Part shown: positions 7,060 to 40,221 of the stretch, piece after piece | Numbering within the stretch: position 1 is the first letter of the stretch | Layout: every line of letters starts with the position of its first letter | Assembly (NCBI RefSeq): GCF_036014015.1 | Contig: NZ_CP107905.1 | Location: 2,232,001-2,296,000, forward strand | DNA: 64,000 bases | Direction of reading: 5' to 3' | DNA from: Streptomyces sp. NBC_00457 | GTDB taxonomy: Bacteria; Actinomycetota; Actinomycetes; Streptomycetales; Streptomycetaceae | Notes under the pieces: model-generated | What the model saw: the letters and a program-made list of their open reading frames with translations, nothing else | Databases searched by the model: none | What the model was told of the DNA's origin: nothing | Made by a program: the position numbers and the translations under genes

Positions 7060-7111
7060 TGCGGGTCCGTTGTGGCTGGTCGCGCAGTTCCCCGCGCCCC
7101 TGAAGGGGCGC
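7060..7111 (-). repeat. Dispersed 3'-end repeat, copy 2
   Basis: The repeat core is on the minus strand. Read in the direction of GH48 transcription it ends in the stem-loop GCGCCCC-TGAA-GGGGCGC (about 7094-7111). This is the most terminator-like orientation: GH48 stop, core, then hairpin. Confidence 0.75.
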
Positions 7112-16354: not shown

Positions 16355-17218
16355 GTGAGCGAGCGGCGACCCGCGCCCACCGTCGGTCAGGTGGTCCTCG
16401 GCAAACGGCTGCAGGAGCTGCGCGAGGCGGCAGGGCTCAAGCGCGAGGAGGCCGCGAAGGTCCTGCGGGTGGCCCCCGCGACCGTGCGGCGCATGGAGAT
16501 GGCCGATGTCGCGCTGAAGATCCCGTACGTCCAGCTGCTCCTTGACGCCTATGGCGTGTCCGAGGAGGAGGCTGCGGCGTTCGTCTCGCTCGCCGAGGAG
16601 GCCAACCAGCCGGGCTGGTGGCAGCGGTTCCACGATGTGCTGCCGGACTGGTTCAGCCTGTATGTGAGCCTGGAGGGCGCCGCCTGGATCATCCGCTCCT
16701 ACGAGCCGCACTTCGTGCCCGGTCTGCTGCAGACGGAGGCGTATGCGCGGGCCGTGCTGGAGGCCGGGACGATCGGACAGACCGGTCCGGAGGCCATCGA
16801 GCGGCATGTGTCGCTGCGCATGGCCCGGCAGCAGCTCCTGGAGCGCGACGACCACCCCCACCTGTGGGTGATCATGGATGAAACGGTCCTGCTCCGTCCT
16901 GTGAGCGACGACGGCTCCGTCCTGCGCGAACAGATCGACAAGCTGCTGGAGTTCGCCGAGCGCGACCACGTCACCCTCCAGGTCGCCGAGTTCAGGGCGG
17001 GCCCGCACCCGGGGACGTACGCGCCGTTCACGCTGTTCCGGTTCGGCGAGCCCGAGCTTCCCGACATGGTCTTCACCGAGTATCTGACCGGCGCGCTGTA
17101 TCTCGACTCCCGCACGGAGGTCTCCACGCACCTGGAGGTGCTGGACCACATGACGGCGCGTGCCGCGTCCGCCGAGCAGACCAAGAAGATCCTGCGGGAC
17201 CACCGCGGCAACTGCTGA
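16355..17218 (+). CDS. XRE-family regulator with DUF5753 domain
   Basis: A 287-aa protein of the expanded Streptomyces type: an N-terminal HTH (about 12-65: LGKRLQELREAAGLKREEAAKVL) followed by DUF5753 (about 95-275), recognised by WIIRSYEPHFVPGLLQTEAYARAV, then the VSLRMARQQLL helix and FTLFRFGEPELPDMVFTE. Such regulators usually sit beside DUF397 genes and act in developmental or antibiotic control. Here no DUF397 gene is adjacent; instead a DUF574 methyltransferase follows after 36 bp. GTG 16355 follows AGGGGAGG. Confidence 0.92.
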   Translation: MSERRPAPTVGQVVLGKRLQELREAAGLKREEAAKVLRVAPATVRRMEMADVALKIPYVQLLLDAYGVSEEEAAAFVSLAEEANQPGWWQRFHDVLPDWFSLYVSLEGAAWIIRSYEPHFVPGLLQTEAYARAVLEAGTIGQTGPEAIERHVSLRMARQQLLERDDHPHLWVIMDETVLLRPVSDDGSVLREQIDKLLEFAERDHVTLQVAEFRAGPHPGTYAPFTLFRFGEPELPDMVFTEYLTGALYLDSRTEVSTHLEVLDHMTARAASAEQTKKILRDHRGNC

Positions 17219-17254: not shown

Positions 17255-18070
17255 ATGACCGGTTCCGAGGCCGAGTTCGCCCGCATCGACACCAGCCGTC
17301 CGCATCCCGCCCGGGTCTACGACTGGTGGCTGGGCGGCAAGGACAACTACCCGGTGGACGAGGAGCTGGCCCGCAGGATCCTGGCCGTCGACGGCACGGT
17401 GCTGCGCGGGGCGCGCGCCAACCGCCGCTTCATGCACCGGGCGACGCGGACGGTGGCGCAGGCGGGGATCCGCCAGTTCCTGGACATCGGCACGGGCATC
17501 CCCACCGAACCCAATCTGCACCAGGTGGCCCAGCAGGTCGCGCCGGAGTCGAAGGTGGTGTACGCCGACAACGACCCGATCGTCCTGCGGCACGCGGAGG
17601 CCCTGCTGCACGGCTCGGCCCAGGGCGCGACCGAGTACGTGCACGCCGACGTCCGTGACATCGACAGCCTGCTGAGCCGGGCCGGGGAGTCCCTGGACCT
17701 CGGTGCGCCGGTGGCGCTGTCGCTGGTCGCGCTGACGCACTACCTGGGCGACGACCCCGACGGCGACGACGTGTACGGACTGCTGCGGAAGTACGTCGCC
17801 GCGCTCGCCCCGGGCAGCTACCTGGTCCTGTCCCAGGTCACTCCCGACCTCAGCCCGGAGGCGATCGGGAAGGCGGCGGAGAACTTCCGGCGCAGCGGCA
17901 CCCCGTTCTTCCCCCGTTCGCTCGCCGAGTTCTCGCGCTTCTTCGACGGCCTGGAGCTGCTGGGCCCCGGTGTGATCCCGGTGACGGGCTGGCGGCCGGA
18001 GCCGGAGGACGTGGCGGTCCAGGCCGAGGGCATCGTGCCGGTGTACGCGGGAGTCGCCCGTAAGGCCTGA
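17255..18070 (+). CDS. DUF574 S-adenosyl methyltransferase
   Basis: A 271-aa member of the actinobacterial DUF574 (Methyltransf_19) family. Diagnostic features are the N-terminal HPARVYDWWLGGKDNYPVD, RANRRFMHRATR, the SAM motif FLDIGTGIPTEPN and VYADNDPIV. Substrates are unknown for the family. It lies 36 bp after the DUF5753 gene in the same direction with AGGAG before its ATG, a common pairing in Streptomyces, so the two are probably cotranscribed. The gene ends 22 bp before the inverted repeat of the nar operon promoter. Confidence 0.93.
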   Translation: MTGSEAEFARIDTSRPHPARVYDWWLGGKDNYPVDEELARRILAVDGTVLRGARANRRFMHRATRTVAQAGIRQFLDIGTGIPTEPNLHQVAQQVAPESKVVYADNDPIVLRHAEALLHGSAQGATEYVHADVRDIDSLLSRAGESLDLGAPVALSLVALTHYLGDDPDGDDVYGLLRKYVAALAPGSYLVLSQVTPDLSPEAIGKAAENFRRSGTPFFPRSLAEFSRFFDGLELLGPGVIPVTGWRPEPEDVAVQAEGIVPVYAGVARKA

Positions 18071-18092
18071 CCCGTACGGGCGCCGTGAACAG

Positions 18093-18147: not shown

Positions 18148-21100
18148 GTGACCGACACGCAGATGCCGCCCGCCGAGCCGGCCGCGTTCCTGCTGCGCAC
18201 CGGCCGGTTCTTCCGCTCCGGCACGCCCTCCCCCGACCTGCACGGCACCGCTCTGACCGGCGACCGGGAGGCGGACGCCGTCGAGCCCTGCGGCTGCCCG
18301 CGGGACGCCGCCTTCTCCCGGTCCGCCTACCCTCCCACCCGGGTGCGCTACCCGTACGTCCGCGGTGTGCTCCTGCGGATGTACCGGGAGGCGAAGGAAC
18401 GCCTGCGGGACCCCGTCCTCGCCTGGGCCGACATCCAGCGGGACCCTGCGCGCCGCCGCCGCTACCAGCGGGCCCGCGGCACGGGCGGCCTGGTCCGCGC
18501 CGGCTGGGACGAGGCGGTCGAGATCGTCGCCGCCGCGCATGTCCACACCATCAAGGCGTACGGCCCCGACCGCATCGCCGGCTTCTCGCCCGTCCCGGCG
18601 ATGTCGATGGTGTCGCACGCGGCGGGCGCCCGCTTCCACGCGCTGATCGGCGCCCCGATGCTGTCGTACGCGGACGTGCCTGTCGCCTCGCCGCAGGTCT
18701 TCGGCGACCGGACGGACGTACCGGAGTCGGGCGACTGGTGGGACGCCGCGTATCTGATGATGTGGGGCTCCGACGTCCCGGTGACCCGCACACCCGACGC
18801 GCACCGGATGGCGGAGGCCCGCTACCGCGGCCAGAAGGTCGTGGTCGTCGCCCCCGACGACGCGAACAACGCGGACCACGCGAGGTTCGCCGACGAGTGG
18901 CTGCATCCGCACCCCGGCACGGACGGCGCCCTCGCGCTCGCCATGGGCCACGTCATCCTCAGGGAGTTCTTCGTCGACCGCGAGACGCCGTTCTTCGCGG
19001 ACTACGTACGGAAGTTCACCGACCTGCCCTTCCTGGTGACCCTGACCGAACGGGACGGCGCCTACGTCCCGGGGAAGTTCCTGCGCGCCACCGATCTGGG
19101 GCACAAGGGCGAGGGTGCGCAGTGGAAGACGGTCGTGCTGGACGCGGCGAGCGGACGGGCCGTCGTCCCGAACGGCTCGCTCGGCTTCCGCTGGACCGAC
19201 TCGGACAAGGGCAACTGGAATCTCGAACTCGGCTCGATCGAACCGCAGTTGAGCCTGTACGGCCATCAGGCGGCCGGAGGCGTGGCGGTGCTGCTCCCGC
19301 GCTTCGACACCGAGGGCGGCGAGCACGGTCAGGGGCGGGGGGACGTCCTGCGGCGGGGAGTCCCGGCGACCCGGCTCGGCGGCGCCGAGGGCCCCCTGGT
19401 CACCACGGTCTTCGACCTGCTCCTCGCCCAGTACGGCATCTTCCGCCACGGCCTGCCCGGCCGCTGGCCCGCCTCCTACGAGGACGCCGGCACGCCCTGC
19501 ACGCCCGCCTGGCAGGAGGCGCACACATCCGTTCCGGCGGCCAAGTGCGTGAAGATCGCCCGGGAGTTCGCGCGGACGGCCGAGCGGTCCAAGGGCCGCT
19601 GCATGATCCTGACGGGCGCGGGGACGAACCACTGGTTCCACTCCGAGACGATCCACCGCGCCTTCCTCGCCCTTCTCCAGCTCACCGGCTGCCAGGGCCG
19701 CAACGGCGGCGGCTGGGCACACTACGCGGGCCAGGAGAAGTGCTGTCCGGTGACCGGTTGGACGACGCCGGCCGCCGCCTCCGACTGGTCGGGTCCGGCG
19801 CGCCAGATGAGCGGCACCGCGTACTGGTTCCTCCACACCGACCAGTGGCGCTACGACCGGTTCACCGCCGACGTGCTCGCCTCGCCGCTGGGTGAGGGCC
19901 GGTTCGCGGGGATGACGGGCGCGGACTGCCTTGCCCTGTCGGTGCGTTCGGGGTGGATGCCGTCGTATCCGACCTTCGACCGCAATCCGCTGGAGCTGGG
20001 CGGGGCGTTCGGCGATCCGGTGTCGCGGGTGGTGGCCGAACTCCGCGCCGGGACCCTGAAGTTCGCGTGCGAGGACCCGGACGCGCCGGAGAACTGGCCG
20101 CGCGTGCTGACGCTGTGGCGGGCCGATCCGCTGGGCTCGTCGGCGACGGGTGCCGAGTACTTCACCAGGCATCTGCTGGGCACGCAGTCGTCGCTGAGCG
20201 CGCGGGAGGCCGAGCCCGGCGAGCGCCCGCGGGATGTGACCTGGCGGGACGAGGCGCCCGAGGGCAAGCTCGATCTGCTGCTGTCGCTGGACTTCCGGCA
20301 GACCTCGTCGACGCTGCTGTCGGACGTCGTCCTGCCCGCCGCGACCGACTTCGACACGTTCAAGGCGCTGGCAGAGAGGCTGAGCGAGCTGGCCGTCGGC
20401 CATCTCGGGGTGCGCAAGGACCTGGTCGCGTCGCCGCTCCAGCACGACACGCCGGGCGAGATCGCCCAGCCGGGAGGGGTGGTGAGGGACTGGAAGCGCG
20501 GGGAGTGCGACCCCGTGCCCGGGAGGACGATGCCCCACCTGACCGTGGTGGAGCGTGACTACACGGCGATCGGCGAGAAGTTCACCGCCCCGACCGAAGA
20601 GGTCGAGGATCTACGGCAGTTGAACGGCACGGCGTACGACGGCCGCCCCTCCCACCTCAAGCCCTGGCACACCATCACCGGGCGCCAGCACTTCTTCCTG
20701 GACCACGACTGGATCCATGAGCTGGGCGAGGCGCTCCCGGTGTACCGGCCTCCCCTGGACATGAACCGGCTCGTCGGCGAACCCCGCGTCGGGCCGGACG
20801 GCCAACGCGAGGTGACGGTCCGTTACCTCACCCCGCACGACAAGTGGTCCCTCCACTCCGAGTACCAGGACCACCTCTTCATGCTGGCGCTCTCCCATGG
20901 CGACCGGCACATCTGGATGTCTCCGCAGGACGCGGACGCGATCGGCGTCAAGGACGACGACTGGATCGAGACGGTCGACAGCGACGGCGTCGTCGTCGCC
21001 CGCGCCGTCGTCTCGCACCGCATCCCGCACGGCACCGTCTACACGCATCACGCGCAGGAACGCACAGTGGGCGTACCGAAGACGGAGCCGACCCGGCTGC

Positions 21101-21231
21101 TCCTCAAGCCGTCCCACCTGGTCGGCGGCTACGCCCAGCTCTCCTGGGCGTTCGACTGCCTGGGCCCCACGGGCGACCAGCGCGACGAGGTGACGGTGCT
21201 CCGCCGCCGCAGCCAGGGGGTCGAGTCCTGA
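18148..21231 (+). CDS. narG: NarG-like nitrate reductase alpha subunit with internal deletions
   Basis: Molybdopterin oxidoreductase of the membrane-bound nitrate reductase type, 1027 aa against about 1230-1250 in typical NarG. Identity is clear from PVPAMSMVSHAAGARF, WGSDVPVTRTPDAH, NHWFHSE, GGGWAHYAGQEK and LKPSHLVGGYAQLSW. The Mo-ligand Asp is probably D176 (ADVPVASPQ). By comparison with remembered NarG sequences, in-frame segments are missing near residue 44 (the HxxxCxxxC part of the FS0 site; only the last Cys, C50, remains), residue 175 (about 4 aa), residue 733 (about 30 aa), and residues 814 and 835 (about 100 aa together). GTG 18148 is preceded by AAGGGAG. The stop overlaps the narH start. 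Function as a nitrate reductase is doubtful. Confidence 0.85.
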   Translation: MTDTQMPPAEPAAFLLRTGRFFRSGTPSPDLHGTALTGDREADAVEPCGCPRDAAFSRSAYPPTRVRYPYVRGVLLRMYREAKERLRDPVLAWADIQRDPARRRRYQRARGTGGLVRAGWDEAVEIVAAAHVHTIKAYGPDRIAGFSPVPAMSMVSHAAGARFHALIGAPMLSYADVPVASPQVFGDRTDVPESGDWWDAAYLMMWGSDVPVTRTPDAHRMAEARYRGQKVVVVAPDDANNADHARFADEWLHPHPGTDGALALAMGHVILREFFVDRETPFFADYVRKFTDLPFLVTLTERDGAYVPGKFLRATDLGHKGEGAQWKTVVLDAASGRAVVPNGSLGFRWTDSDKGNWNLELGSIEPQLSLYGHQAAGGVAVLLPRFDTEGGEHGQGRGDVLRRGVPATRLGGAEGPLVTTVFDLLLAQYGIFRHGLPGRWPASYEDAGTPCTPAWQEAHTSVPAAKCVKIAREFARTAERSKGRCMILTGAGTNHWFHSETIHRAFLALLQLTGCQGRNGGGWAHYAGQEKCCPVTGWTTPAAASDWSGPARQMSGTAYWFLHTDQWRYDRFTADVLASPLGEGRFAGMTGADCLALSVRSGWMPSYPTFDRNPLELGGAFGDPVSRVVAELRAGTLKFACEDPDAPENWPRVLTLWRADPLGSSATGAEYFTRHLLGTQSSLSAREAEPGERPRDVTWRDEAPEGKLDLLLSLDFRQTSSTLLSDVVLPAATDFDTFKALAERLSELAVGHLGVRKDLVASPLQHDTPGEIAQPGGVVRDWKRGECDPVPGRTMPHLTVVERDYTAIGEKFTAPTEEVEDLRQLNGTAYDGRPSHLKPWHTITGRQHFFLDHDWIHELGEALPVYRPPLDMNRLVGEPRVGPDGQREVTVRYLTPHDKWSLHSEYQDHLFMLALSHGDRHIWMSPQDADAIGVKDDDWIETVDSDGVVVARAVVSHRIPHGTVYTHHAQERTVGVPKTEPTRLLLKPSHLVGGYAQLSWAFDCLGPTGDQRDEVTVLRRRSQGVES

Positions 21232-22658
21232 TGCGCCCCATGGCCCAGATCGCGATGGTGATGAACCTCGACAAGTGCATCGGCTGCCACACCTGCTCGG
21301 TGACCTGCAAACAGGCGTGGACCGACCGCCAGGGCATGGAGCACATCTGGTTCAACAACGTCGAGACCCGCCCCGGCCAGGGCTATCCGCGCCGCTACGA
21401 GGACCAGGAGACGTGGCAGGGCGGCTGGCGGCTGAACCGGCGCGGTGCGCTGAAGCTGAAGGCGGGCGGCCGTTTCAAGAGGCTCGCGGGCAGCATCTCC
21501 CAGCCGGTACTCCCGGAGATCAAGGACTACCACGAGCCCTGGACCTACGACTACGAGAACGATCCGATGGTCGAGCGGGTCCGCCAACAGGCCGCCGACA
21601 AGGTGCGTTTCGAGTTCGAGCAGACCTTCATGTTCTATCTGCCGCGCATCTGCGAGCACTGCCTCAACCCGTCCTGTGTGGCCGCCTGTCCGTCCGGCGC
21701 GATGTACAAGCGGGAGGAGGACGGCATCGTCCTCGTCGACCAGGACCGCTGCCGGGGCCGGCGGATGTGCGTGACGGGATGCCCGTACAAGAAGGTCTAC
21801 TTCAACCACCGCACCGGCAAGGCCGAGAAGTGCACGCTGTGCTCTCCGCGCCTCGAGGTGGGGCTGCCGACGGTCTGCTCGGAGACGTGCGTGGGGCGGC
21901 TCCGCTATCTCGGGGTGGTGCTGTACGACGCGGACAGGGTGACGGCCGCGGCTTCCGTGCCCGACGAACAGGAGCTGTACGCGGCGCAGTTGGGCGTCTT
22001 CCTCGACCCGGAGGATCCCGGGGTGCGGCGGGCCTGTGCGGGGGCGGGGATCCCGTACGACTGGGTGGAGGCGGCCCGGCGGTCGCCCGTGCACGCGCTG
22101 ATCAGCAGGTACCGGGTGGCGCTTCCGCTGCATCCCGAGTACCGCACCATGCCGATGGTCTGGTACATCCCGCCGCTGTCGCCGGTGGTCGAGGCGCTGA
22201 CGGAGACCGGGCACGACGGCGAGGACGCGCGGAACCTGTTCGGCGCGATCGACACCCTGCGCATTCCGCTGGAGTATCTGGCGGAGCTCTTCACCGCGGG
22301 CGATGTCGCCCCGGTCCGGGCGTCGTTGGAGAAGCTCGCCGCGATGCGCTCCCACATGCGCGCCATCAACCTCGGCGAGGAGCCCGATCCGTCGGTAGCG
22401 CGCGCCGTCGGCATGCGGGCCGACGAGATCGAGGAGATGTACCGGCTGCTGGCGATCGCCGAGTACGAGGACCGGTATGTGATCCCGACGGCGGGTGTCT
22501 CAGACGCGCGACGGCTGGAGGAGTCGGCGCTCCCGGGCGGGTGCAGCCTCGACCACGACGGCGGGCCCGGCATGGGCGGCGACGGGCCGTTCGGCCGGGA
22601 CTCCGGGGGCCGTATCCATCTGCCGCTCGTGTCCGTGGAAAAGGAGGAGGAGACCTGA
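21231..22658 (+). CDS. narH: NarH-like iron-sulfur beta subunit
   Basis: A 475-aa electron-transfer subunit. All 15 cluster cysteines of NarH are present: 16/19/22/26, 141/144/149/153, 174/180/184 and 201/204/216/220. The conserved Trp of CRGWRMC, which replaces a fourth ligand at the 3Fe-4S site, is Arg177 here. About 37 residues are missing between WTYDYEN (104-110) and the FEQTFMFYLPRICEHC segment compared with other actinobacterial NarH. The C-terminal NarH domain (LPLHPEYRTMPMVWYIPPLSP and after) is complete. The start ATG shares its A with the narG stop (TGATG), indicating translational coupling. Confidence 0.9.
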   Translation: MRPMAQIAMVMNLDKCIGCHTCSVTCKQAWTDRQGMEHIWFNNVETRPGQGYPRRYEDQETWQGGWRLNRRGALKLKAGGRFKRLAGSISQPVLPEIKDYHEPWTYDYENDPMVERVRQQAADKVRFEFEQTFMFYLPRICEHCLNPSCVAACPSGAMYKREEDGIVLVDQDRCRGRRMCVTGCPYKKVYFNHRTGKAEKCTLCSPRLEVGLPTVCSETCVGRLRYLGVVLYDADRVTAAASVPDEQELYAAQLGVFLDPEDPGVRRACAGAGIPYDWVEAARRSPVHALISRYRVALPLHPEYRTMPMVWYIPPLSPVVEALTETGHDGEDARNLFGAIDTLRIPLEYLAELFTAGDVAPVRASLEKLAAMRSHMRAINLGEEPDPSVARAVGMRADEIEEMYRLLAIAEYEDRYVIPTAGVSDARRLEESALPGGCSLDHDGGPGMGGDGPFGRDSGGRIHLPLVSVEKEEET

Positions 22659-23128
22659 TGCCCACGTTCGAGGTGCTCTACCAGGCGGCGGCGCTCTGTC
22701 TCACCTACCCCGACGACGAGTTCCGCGCCCGGCTTCCGCTGCTGCGCGAAGCCGCCCCGCAGCTACGGGAGTTCACCGACCACGCCGCGGTGACCGACCC
22801 GCAGCAGCTGGCCGCGCACTACGTCCAGGTCTTCGACTTCGACAACCGCCACAGCCTGTACCTGAGCTGGTGGCACGACGGCGACACCCGGCGCCGGGGC
22901 ATGTCCCTGGTCCGCTTCAAGGAGCTCTACCGCGCCCACGGCCTGGAGTTCACCGGCGAGGAACTGCCGGACTTCCTGCCCGCGGTCCTGGAGTTCGCCT
23001 CCCGCACCGGCAACACCGACCTCCTCACCGACCACCGCACCGCCCTGCAACAACTCCGTTCCCACCTCACCGACTTCGGCACCCCGTACGCCTGCGTCCT
23101 GGACGCGGTGTGCGCGACGCTGGACTGA
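22658..23128 (+). CDS. narJ: NarJ-like molybdenum-enzyme chaperone
   Basis: Redox-enzyme maturation protein of the TorD/NarJ fold that normally holds apo-NarGH before cofactor and NarI attachment. The all-helical protein shows HYVQVFDFDNRHSLYLSWWHDGDTRRRG, the family hallmark near residue 50, and ELPDFLPAVLEF. At 156 aa it lacks the usual C-terminal tail of NarJ. The ATG overlaps the narH TGA (TGATG). The operon stops here: narI, the membrane cytochrome b subunit, does not follow. A dispersed repeat begins 2 bp after the stop. Confidence 0.88.
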   Translation: MPTFEVLYQAAALCLTYPDDEFRARLPLLREAAPQLREFTDHAAVTDPQQLAAHYVQVFDFDNRHSLYLSWWHDGDTRRRGMSLVRFKELYRAHGLEFTGEELPDFLPAVLEFASRTGNTDLLTDHRTALQQLRSHLTDFGTPYACVLDAVCATLD

Positions 23129-23129
23129 C

Positions 23130-23209
23130 GCGCCCCGAAGGGGCGCGGGGCTGTGTCAATTTGCGGCTCCGCCGCGTGGGCGCGACCAGCCACAACGGCG
23201 CCGCAGCCG
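23130..23209 (+). repeat. Dispersed 3'-end repeat, copy 3 (long form)
   Basis: It starts with the hairpin CGCCCC-GAA-GGGGCG, then CGGGGCTGTGTC, an internal stem GCGGC-TCC-GCCGC, and GGGCGCGACCAGCCAC. The long form replaces the AACTGCG core of the short form by an extra stem. It lies between the convergent ends of narJ and dnaK. Confidence 0.75.
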
Positions 23210-23232: not shown

Positions 23233-25098
23233 TTACGCCGCGCCACCCTTCTGGTCGTCCCGCTCGTCGTCGACGATCTCCGCGTCCACCACCCCCTCCT
23301 CGTCCTGCGGCGAGCCCTGCTGACCGGCGTCCTCCGTCGGTGTCTGCTGGGCCTGGGCGTACATCGCCTGGCCCATCTTCTGGCTGACGGAGGCGAGTTT
23401 CTCGACGCCGGTGCGCAGTTCGCTGGTCTCGGCGTCGCGCTCCAGGAGTTCCTTGAGTTCGGTGATCGCGGACTCGACCTCCGACTTCGTGTCGGCGGGG
23501 ACCTTGTCCTCGTTCTCCCGCAGGAACTTCTCGGTCTGGTAGACGAGTTGCTCGGCCTGGTTGCGGGTCTCCGCGGCCTCACGGCGGTTGCGGTCCTCCT
23601 CCGCGTACTGCTCGGCCTCCCGCATCATGCGGTCGATGTCGTCCTTGGGGAGGGCCGAGCCGCCGGTGACGGTCATCTTCTGCTCGCGGCCGGTGGCGAG
23701 GTCCTTGGCGGAGACGTGCATGATGCCGTTGGCGTCGATGTCGAACGCGACCTCGATCTGCGGCACCCCGCGCGGGGCGGGCGGCAGTCCGGTGAGGTCG
23801 AAGACGCCGAGCTTCTTGTTGTAGGCGGCGATCTCGCGTTCGCCCTGGTAGACCTGGATGCCGACCGAGGGCTGGTTGTCGGTGGCGGTGGTGAAGATCT
23901 CCGAACGCCGGGTCGGGATCGTGGTGTTGCGCTCGATGAGCTTGGTCATGATGCCGCCCTTGGTCTCGATGCCCAGGGACAGCGGGGTGACGTCGAGCAG
24001 CAGGACGTCCTTGACGTCACCGCGGATGACACCGGCCTGGAGGGCGGCGCCGACCGCGACGACCTCGTCCGGGTTGACGCCCTTGTGCGGGTCCTTGCCG
24101 GTGAGTTCCTTGACGAGTTCGGTGACCGCGGGCATCCGGGTCGAGCCGCCGACGAGGATCACATGGTCGACCGCGGAGAGCTTGATGCCGGCGTCCTTGA
24201 CCGCCTGGTGGAAGGGGGTCTTGCAGCGGTCGAGGAGATCGGCGGTCAGCTCCTGGAACTGGGCGCGGGTCAGCTTCTCGTCGAGGTGGAGCGGCCCCTC
24301 GGCGGAGGCGGTGATGTAGGGGAGGTTGATCGTGGTCTCGGTGGACGACGACAGCTCGATCTTGGCCTTCTCGGCGCCCTCGCGCAGCCGTTGCAGCGCC
24401 ATCTTGTCGTTGCCGAGGTCGATGCCGTACGACCCCTTGAACCGCTTGACCAGGTATTCCACGACCCGCTGGTCCCAGTCGTCGCCGCCGAGGTGCGTGT
24501 CGCCGTTGGTGGCCTTGACCTCGATGACGCCGTCGCCGATCTCCAGTAGCGACACGTCGAAGGTGCCGCCGCCGAGGTCGAAGACCAGCACGGTCTGCTC
24601 CTCGCCGCGGTCGAGGCCGTAGGCGAGCGCGGCGGCCGTCGGCTCGTTGATGATCCGCAGCACCTTCAGGCCCGCGATCTCCCCGGCCTCCTTGGTCGCC
24701 TGCCGCTGGGCGTCGTCGAAGTACGCCGGTACGGTGATCACCGCGTCGGTGACGTCCTCGCCGAGGTAGGACTCCGCGTCCCGCTTCAGCTTCTGCAGGA
24801 CACGGGCGGACAGCTCCTGGGCCCGGTAGCGGGTGCCGTCGATGTCGCCCTGGTCCGGGAACCGCCAGCTCCCGTCGCCCATGTGCCGCTTCACGGAGCG
24901 AGCGGTGCGCTCCACGTTCGTCACGGCCTGCCGTTTGGCCACCTCACCGACGAGCACCTCGCCGTTCTTCGCGAAGGCCACGACCGACGGTGTGGTCCTG
25001 GCCCCCTCCGCGTTGGCGACGACGCTGGGTTCGCCGCCCTCCAGGACGGCGACCACCGAGTTCGTGGTCCCGAGATCGATTCCGACCGCACGTGCCAT
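23233..25098 (-). CDS. dnaK: Stand-alone DnaK (Hsp70) chaperone
   Basis: A 621-aa ATP-dependent chaperone. The nucleotide-binding domain is about 1-360 ([71 protein letters not shown]). The substrate-binding domain is about 375-495 ([13 protein letters not shown]), followed by a helical lid and an acidic tail ending in [15 protein letters not shown]. Unlike the main heat-shock operon of actinobacteria there is no grpE, dnaJ or hspR beside it, so it is probably a second DnaK. GGAAGGGGACAGC precedes the ATG. An imperfect HspR box upstream suggests heat-shock control. Confidence 0.95.
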
Positions 25099-31036: not shown

Positions 31037-31112
31037 GCGGGTTCGTTGTGGCTGGTCGCGCCCACGCGGCGGAGCCGCATATCGACACAGCCCCGCGCCC
31101 CTTCGGGGGCGC
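31037..31112 (-). repeat. Dispersed 3'-end repeat, copy 5 (long form)
   Basis: The long form on the minus strand: hairpin GCGCCCCC-GAAG-GGGCGC first, then GGGGCTGTGTCGATATGC with the GCGGC-TCC-GCCGC stem, then GCGACCAGCCAC. It lies 6 bp after the stop of the leftward gene at 31119. Its sequence is almost identical to copy 3 apart from AATTTG versus GATATG. Confidence 0.75.
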
Positions 31113-40171: not shown

Positions 40172-40221
40172 GGGGCGCGGGGAACTGCGCGACCAGCCAC
40201 AACGAGGCAGCAAGACCGCAG
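40164..40221 (+). repeat. Dispersed 3'-end repeat, copy 7
   Basis: CGCCGTAAGGGGCGCGGGG then AACTGCG, CGACCAGCCACAACG and GCAAGACCGCAG. The hairpin has decayed on one arm, and its TAA is the stop codon of the PAS/GAF gene. The repeat sits between this stop and the convergent sigma factor gene. Confidence 0.7.

What the first reader, a model, noticed from the sequence alone, without database searches (positions are those of the whole stretch)
18148..21231. NarG-like subunit lacking the FS0 iron-sulfur ligand segment and several other conserved blocks
Seen: the N-terminal H-x3-C-x3-C segment of NarG is absent. The sequence runs from GDREADA directly to EPCGCPRD, so only the fourth ligand (C50) and an extra Cys (C48) remain. 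Further in-frame losses are inferred near residues 175, 733, 814 and 835; the protein is 1027 aa against about 1240. Known: FS0 bridges NarH FS1 and the Mo cofactor. Either the enzyme is dead but kept as an open frame, or it is a shortened type with a different electron route. All junctions keep the frame and codon bias is normal, which is unexpected for a free-decaying gene.
Basis: partly seen in the sequence, partly recalled or inferred. Interest (0 to 1): 0.72.

Follow-up and report, generated by a model that had tools for sequence, protein, structure and literature searches.

The report
Dying nitrate reductase beside surviving chaperone
In this Streptomyces a respiratory nitrate reductase has lost the iron-sulfur segment it needs to work and is shrinking piece by piece, and in many relatives only the small assembly chaperone encoded behind it is left, which suggests that the chaperone has a second, unknown job.

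Summary
In detail: the NarG-like ORF (18148-21231, 1027 aa) lacks the FS0 H-C-C segment and four other blocks; also an 11-aa block, about 45 aa of NarH, and NarI. It is probably no artefact and no stable short type. GESEQ-4 shares the FS0 loss but has other later deletions; 14 of 15 shortened Streptomyces NarGs lost FS0 ligands, with 12 endpoint sets. Deleted columns are more conserved than kept ones, so this looks like inactivation. The decay is odd: all seven long decayed narG genes of this type that I read as DNA are one open frame, and dN/dS is raised but below 1. Of 295 Streptomyces genomes, 83 hold this narJ type: 44 with full-length narG, 1 split over contigs, 5 with shortened narG, 33 with none (orphan narJ, same site in 32); I saw no such narG without narJ. 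Best reading: NarG here is a dead relic in an operon kept for NarJ. Frame keeping through translational coupling is inferred and has counter-examples; the control (narG relics elsewhere, 4 of 5 frame-broken, narJ in 0 of 10) is not matched for stage of decay. What NarJ does is unknown.

The parts
18148..21231 (+). narG-like ORF, 1027 aa, eroded catalytic subunit
   Evidence: TIGR01580 1094.1 bits; aligned with GESEQ-4, GESEQ-35 and full-length orthologues
18282..18283 (+). junction where the FS0 H-x3-C-x3-C segment is missing (53 aa)
18666..18667 (+). junction where FYDW is missing; the following YAD, Asp kept, aligns with E. coli YCD
20346..20347 (+). junction, 31 aa lost, including the Glu that by my count aligns with the E. 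coli Glu of a conserved salt bridge
   Evidence: salt bridge from PMC5123574 passages
20589..20590 (+). junction, 18 aa lost
20652..20653 (+). junction, 86 aa lost
21231..22658 (+). narH, 475 aa; start overlaps the narG stop (TGATG); about 45 aa lost at 21560/21561; Fe-S cysteines kept, FS4 Trp to Arg
   Evidence: TIGR01660 643.6 bits; alignment
22658..23128 (+). narJ, 156 aa; start overlaps the narH stop (TGATG); the part that survives in relatives
   Evidence: TIGR00684 94.8 bits, PF02613
23129..23232 (.). place where narI would lie; a dispersed repeat lies here between narJ and dnaK
   Evidence: no NarI hit; repeat
23233..25098 (-). dnaK-like gene (named from the sequence, no family search run), convergent; neighbour of the site
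   Evidence: ORF; found next to 25 of 33 orphan narJ
17255..18070 (+). SAM-methyltransferase gene (PF04672), upstream neighbour; found at 14 of 33 orphan loci
16355..17218 (+). HTH/DUF5753 regulator gene, upstream neighbour; marks the site in 32 of 33 orphan loci

Best explanation
NarG here is a catalytically dead relic within a nar1-type operon that is being dismantled. Shown by sequence: FS0 excision, in-frame losses in narG and narH, loss of narI, and in other species the end state, an orphan narJ at the same site behind what is left of the narG upstream region. Inferred: the operon is kept because NarJ does a job that does not need NarG; and frame-breaking lesions in the long narG and narH were selected against because the three genes overlap as TGATG, so that losing upstream translation would lower NarJ. 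NarG cannot bind FS0 and so should not receive the molybdenum cofactor in the cell.
For: (1) 14 of 15 shortened NarGs lack FS0 ligands. (2) narJ without narG in 33 of 83 genomes, narG without narJ in none that I saw (lists; count); narI, only about 1.5 times as long, has no full copy in the 33 (longest remnant 76 residues). (3) Same site: HTH gene upstream in 32 of 33, dnaK downstream in 25 of 33, methyltransferase in 14 of 33; the narG 5' region stands in front of narJ, for example L205, L207, L199. (4) Graded series: L002 (one lesion), window and L001 (many), L154 (narG 897 codons, narH 346 aa, both open and far below their family cut-offs, narJ above it), L196 (narG-narH fused, 293 codons ending at the narJ start), L190 (28 codons). 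(5) All 7 long decayed nar1-type narG read as DNA are one open frame: window, L001, L002, L035, L154, L155, L220. (6) narG relics elsewhere in the genus: full narJ at 0 of 10; of 5 with two or more narG segments 4 change frame. (7) NarJ in 32 orphans is still under purifying selection (dN/dS 0.39; 0.25 in 25 operon copies) without unusual fourfold-site conservation. (8) FS0 insertion is called a prerequisite for Moco insertion in E. coli NarG (PMC5123574 passages).
Against: Coupling is not shown: in seven collapsed loci with a recognisable narG start 2 ORFs end at the narJ start, about what chance gives, and narJ has its own SD-like AAGGAGG. L157 at the nar1 site is an out-of-frame narG'-narH' fusion; remnants in L188, L189, L195 lie in different frames; L048 narG reads in two frames. 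The relics were picked as fragments, so they are at a later stage than the seven long loci. Four long narG of other type change frame (L116-L119), and two of these genomes have narJ just downstream (G034, G081): either draft errors or frame loss despite narJ. Orphan NarJ has in many cases lost or degenerated its middle segment. In-phase microhomology alone would make 46-72% of slippage deletions in-frame, and an open frame was why this locus was noticed. Well-supported branches of the NarJ tree force only one origin of the orphan state; parsimony gives 11 changes. The same paper passages mention in vitro cofactor insertion into apoNarGH with or without FS0.
Confidence: 0.6

Rival explanations
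1. Plain pseudogene decay: the operon lost its use; in high-GC DNA stops are rare and deletions tend to be in phase, so the ORF is open by luck; narJ survives longest because it is small.
For: dN/dS raised in NarG (window-L001 0.43, three neighbours 0.05-0.16); in-phase microhomology 46-72%; collapsed loci are partly out of frame; with the stem branch included NarH too is raised (0.115 against 0.058).
Against: omega 1 rejected for the window and L001 NarG tips (lnL -11615.43 against -11574.97) and for NarH (-5004.63 against -4983.16); no full narI in 33 orphan loci; 7 of 7 long loci without frame break.
Confidence: 0.27
2. A shortened but working NarG type that passes electrons without FS0.
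For: Residual purifying selection; NarH cysteines kept; Asp at the Mo-ligand position kept.
Against: Deletions differ between sister genomes and hit conserved columns more than others (union 0.74 against 0.66); no NarI; 48 of 745 invariant residues changed against 7 of 915, 5 of 913 and 11 of 870 in L003, L013 and L002.
Confidence: 0.04
3. FS0 excision is itself selected: it disarms Nar1 (no FS0, no Moco) while leaving apo-NarGH with NarJ, before ordinary erosion sets in. (Compatible with the best explanation.)
For: All nine shortened proteins with a single deletion of 4 aa or more, among the 15 counted, carry it within residues 34-112 of 1227; 12 endpoint sets remove ligands.
Against: A mutational hotspot is not excluded; both protein queries lacked all or part of FS0, which favours such hits; P0004 loses the stretch just before FS0 and keeps all ligands; P0085, set aside, has a 5-aa deletion elsewhere; P0103, P0069 and P0029 decayed by point changes at full length.
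Confidence: 0.3

Closest known systems
E. coli nitrate reductase A, NarGHI with chaperone NarJ (1q16, 1r27)
   Same: NarG aligns over most of its length (phmmer E 2.4e-278); gene order G-H-J (E. coli order recalled)
   Different: FS0 segment, FYDW, salt-bridge Glu and in all about 200 aa missing; no NarI
Streptomyces coelicolor Nar1 (SCO6535-6532), spore-specific
   Same: Operon order and subunit sizes as printed in PMC7931247 (passages); orthology of this locus was not tested by sequence
   Different: S. coelicolor Nar1 is active and co-purifies with parts of the bcc-aa3 supercomplex
Paracoccus denitrificans NarJ, chaperone of NarG and NasC
   Same: A NarJ with a client besides NarG (PMC6618116, abstract); the window genome encodes a NasC-like protein, 812.8 bits, below the model's cut-off of 1100
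   Different: There NarG is a working client; many orphan Streptomyces NarJ have a degenerate middle segment
NuoG of complex I
   Same: A relative of NarG that lost the molybdenum cofactor (PMC5123574 passages)
   Different: NuoG is a stable family that keeps an Fe-S cluster at the FS0 position (not in all species); here the cluster goes first and no stable form was seen

Membership tests
NarG (respiratory nitrate reductase alpha) | Family model score above the curated cut-off | tested here: met
   TIGR01580 1094.1 bits, cut-off 1084.15
NarG (respiratory nitrate reductase alpha) | FS0 ligands His and three Cys | tested here: not met
   only the fourth position (C50) is left
NarG (respiratory nitrate reductase alpha) | Asp ligand of Mo (role and number recalled) | tested here: met
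   YAD aligned with E. coli YCD, although FYDW before it is lost
NarG (respiratory nitrate reductase alpha) | Membrane partner NarI in the operon | tested here: not met
   no NarI hit at the locus
NarG (respiratory nitrate reductase alpha) | Nitrate reductase activity | not testable with these tools
   needs enzyme assay
Pseudogene | Frameshifts or stops | tested here: not met
   narG, narH and narJ are each one open frame
Pseudogene | Neutral evolution (omega 1) | tested here: not met
   omega 0.16 on the window and L001 tips, 1 rejected; background 0.05
NarJ chaperone family (orphan copies) | PF02613 above cut-off | tested here: met
   4 of 4 orphan proteins given (of 33), 44.6-56.1 bits, cut-off 22.2
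NarJ chaperone family (orphan copies) | Central YLSWW-DGDTRRRG segment | tested here: inconclusive
   kept in some orphans (L188, L189), deleted or degenerate in many; codons 81-90 differ by 0.60 per pair in 32 orphans against 0.14 in 25 operon copies; that this segment defines the family is my reading of the alignment

The most novel reading that the evidence does not exclude
NarJ of the nar1-type operon has a function of its own in Streptomyces that is independent of NarG and in many lineages no longer needs its conserved central loop; these lineages first disarm the enzyme by cutting out FS0 in frame and then telescope narG and narH until the old nar leader drives narJ alone.
Probability: 0.4. 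Interest if true: 0.75.

Novelty: new variant of a known kind. Interest (0 to 1): 0.6.

Why it matters
Molybdoenzyme chaperones of this kind are mostly thought of as tied to their enzyme. A chaperone left behind in 33 of 83 genomes, at one site, is a direct lead to a second job for NarJ and offers strains in which that job can be studied without this enzyme. The series is also a step-by-step record of how a large metalloenzyme is dismantled, seemingly starting at its iron-sulfur cluster. For annotation: 'nitrate reductase subunit alpha' in these records should not be read as nitrate respiration.

Tried and rejected
Frame keeping by microhomology alone: in-phase share 0.46-0.72 depending on word length; it weakens the argument but does not by itself make seven of seven likely. 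DNA-level constraint in narJ: fourfold sites of the conserved N-terminal part are not specially conserved. NarJ kept for the NasC-like enzyme: possible, not tested; 281 of 295 genomes have some hit of the NarG query (NasC-like proteins were not counted apart) while 83 have this NarJ type. Papers: the searches listed none whose title or shown abstract deals with orphan narJ or FS0 loss in Streptomyces; only listings were seen apart from PMC5123574 and PMC7931247 (passages) and PMC6618116 (abstract and outline). Structure prediction was not run; gaps were not mapped on coordinates, only on alignments.
Full report
What is in the window. The ORF at 18148-21231 encodes 1027 aa and scores 1094.1 bits to the NarG equivalog model, just over its cut-off. 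Against full-length Streptomyces orthologues it lacks 53 aa with the FS0 His and two Cys, FYDW before the kept Asp, and 31, 18, 86 and 11 aa further on, and has 3 aa more near residue 242. narH (21231-22658) lacks about 45 aa and 12 aa but keeps its Fe-S cysteines, with Trp to Arg at FS4; narJ (22658-23128) is 156 aa; no narI was found. narG-narH and narH-narJ overlap as TGATG. No second narG was seen in the 10.8 Mb genome.

Is it recurrent? GESEQ-4 (L001, 91% identical) has the same FS0 and FYDW losses but different lesions further on: after VLPAAT it keeps WHEK, after KFTA it keeps LGPLVEQ-LPAK but loses a block that the window keeps. GESEQ-35 (L002, 84%) is nearly full length and lacks 42 aa with FS0, with other endpoints. 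A protein search (120 of 7040 hits listed) and a second one gave 125 proteins; 17 are shorter than 1222 aa. I set aside P0085 (a 5-aa deletion elsewhere, otherwise intact) and P0118 (partial record). Of the 15 left, one being the window itself, 14 lost at least one FS0 ligand; P0004 lost the stretch just before it. P0001-P0003 share one FS0 event; the other endpoints differ, 12 sets in all. The nine with a single deletion of 4 aa or more have it within residues 34-112 of 1227. Both queries lacked all or part of FS0, which favours such hits. Full-length but decayed copies exist: P0103, P0069, P0029 with 80, 46 and 29 changes at about 796 conserved columns.

Dead or altered? Columns conserved in 97% or more of 100 intact proteins make up 0.74 of the ever-deleted and 0.66 of the other columns, the reverse of what a trimmed working enzyme should show. 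At residues invariant in the intact set the window changed 48 of 745, L001 68 of 753, L035 80 of 850; L003 7 of 915, L013 5 of 913, L002 11 of 870. In E. coli, FS0 insertion is described as a prerequisite for Moco insertion and a salt bridge R108-E794 closes the site; the same text mentions in vitro cofactor insertion with or without FS0 (PMC5123574, passages only). The Glu falls, by my count on the alignment, into the 31-aa loss. I conclude that the window NarG is very probably inactive.

How it decays. Changes at nucleotide sites invariant in intact genes lean AT to GC: 37 of 668 AT sites against 23 of 1358 GC sites in the window; L001 48 of 679 against 27 of 1366; L035 65 of 762 against 27 of 1548. 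L003 (3 of 821 against 18 of 1683) and L002 (4 of 781 against 16 of 1589) lean the other way; L013 (3 of 822 against 2 of 1661) has too few to tell. Invariant AT and GC sites differ in kind (the latter include more third positions), so the ratio is rough. Pairwise dN/dS between window and L001: NarG 0.43, NarH 0.28, methyltransferase 0.16, HTH gene 0.11, DnaK 0.05; NarJ 0.32. A branch model gives omega 0.16 on the two NarG tips against 0.05 elsewhere and rejects 1 (lnL -11574.97 against -11615.43); NarH tips 0.077 against 0.062, with the stem 0.115 against 0.058; L035 0.128 (NarG) and 0.121 (NarH). The tips lie after the shared FS0 loss. The model may underestimate omega in such GC-rich sequence; counting at conserved NarG codons gives 0.24 (6 nonsynonymous, 7 synonymous) and 0.48 on the two tips and 0.49 in L035, against 0.04-0.12 in four intact branches and 0.05 in L002. 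So constraint is relaxed, not gone.

Frame. Seven long decayed nar1-type loci were read as DNA and all narG genes are one open frame (window, L001, L002, L035, L154, L155, L220). The tool counted one TAG in a longer match at L154; the 897-codon ORF itself is open. In-phase microhomology would by itself make 46-72% of deletions in-frame. Ten narG relics at other places (L247-L256) show none of the site's neighbours in 10-13 kb, no full narJ (0 of 10; one fragment), and 4 of the 5 with two or more narG segments change frame; but they were picked as fragments and are at a later stage. Exceptions: L157 (out-of-frame narG'-narH'), remnants of L188, L189, L195, L048 with segments in two frames, and four long narG of other type that change frame (L116-L119), two of them with narJ downstream (G034, G081). 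Draft errors cannot be told apart here.

What survives. NarJ was searched in 295 Streptomyces genomes. By my reading of the lists have nar1-type NarJ (67% identity or more to the window's): 44 with a full-length narG of 85% or more to P0009 (same contig in 43; in G152 on another contig), one split over contigs (G017), 5 with shortened narG1, 33 without narG1; each of the 44 has narJ. G221 and G095 (narG 83 and 82%, NarJ 57%) fall under the NarJ limit and are not counted. The 33 orphan loci were fetched: 32 have the HTH gene upstream, 14 the methyltransferase, 25 dnaK downstream (seven of the other eight stretches end 1.9-2.0 kb after the narJ start); tblastn finds narG remnants in 5, narH in 9, narI in 4. 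L154 shows narG 897 codons (522 bits, cut-off 1084), narH 346 aa (242 bits, cut-off 524) and full narJ (84 bits, cut-off 59). In L205, L207, L211 and L218 the narG leader joins the narJ SD directly. In seven collapsed loci with a recognisable narG start, two ORFs (28 and 293 codons) end at the narJ start, five do not. 32 of 33 narJ are open; L219 is disturbed near its start. Orphan NarJ (32) keeps its N- and C-terminal parts (dN/dS 0.34, 0.32) while the middle is looser (0.51); 25 operon NarJ give 0.21, 0.29 and 0.18. A NarJ tree needs at least 11 changes between orphan and operon state, but well-supported branches force only one.

Reading. The window catches an intermediate: enzyme disarmed, NarI gone, NarG and NarH eroding in frame, NarJ kept. 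That NarJ is what selection keeps is the best account of the asymmetry 33 to 0 and the shared site. Coupling as the cause of frame keeping is inference, weakened by the 2 of 7 and the exceptions above. The function or client of NarJ is unknown; the genome encodes NasC-like, formate dehydrogenase-like, NuoG and other molybdopterin-fold proteins, and P. denitrificans NarJ serves NasC as well as NarG (PMC6618116, abstract). The name nar1 is used by operon size match to S. coelicolor (PMC7931247, passages) and was not tested by sequence.

Noticed in passing
23180-23197 (+), 7068-7085 (-), 31044-31061 (-), 40187-40204 (+): A dispersed repeat core GCGCGACCAGCCACAACG lies where narI is missing; 4 exact copies in the window, 78 in the genome against 0 of the reversed control.
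   Followed up: partly
narG of window, L001, L035: Decaying genes drift AT to GC at otherwise invariant sites (3.3 to 4.9 times the GC to AT rate per site), and FYDW became FHDG in P0104, P0069 and P0029; bears on what keeps Streptomyces GC-rich.
   Followed up: partly
P0103, P0069, P0029 (proteins): Full-length NarGs with many changes at conserved columns; P0103 has lost two FS0 cysteines by point changes.
   Followed up: partly
L188: The methyltransferase gene beside an orphan narJ is itself in segments of different frames, unlike narJ.
   Followed up: no
18071-18080 and in front of orphan narJ genes: A palindrome CCCGTACGGG and a stretch up to CGCCCCTAGG are kept in front of narG and of many of the 16 orphan narJ genes aligned, a possible promoter region.
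   Followed up: no
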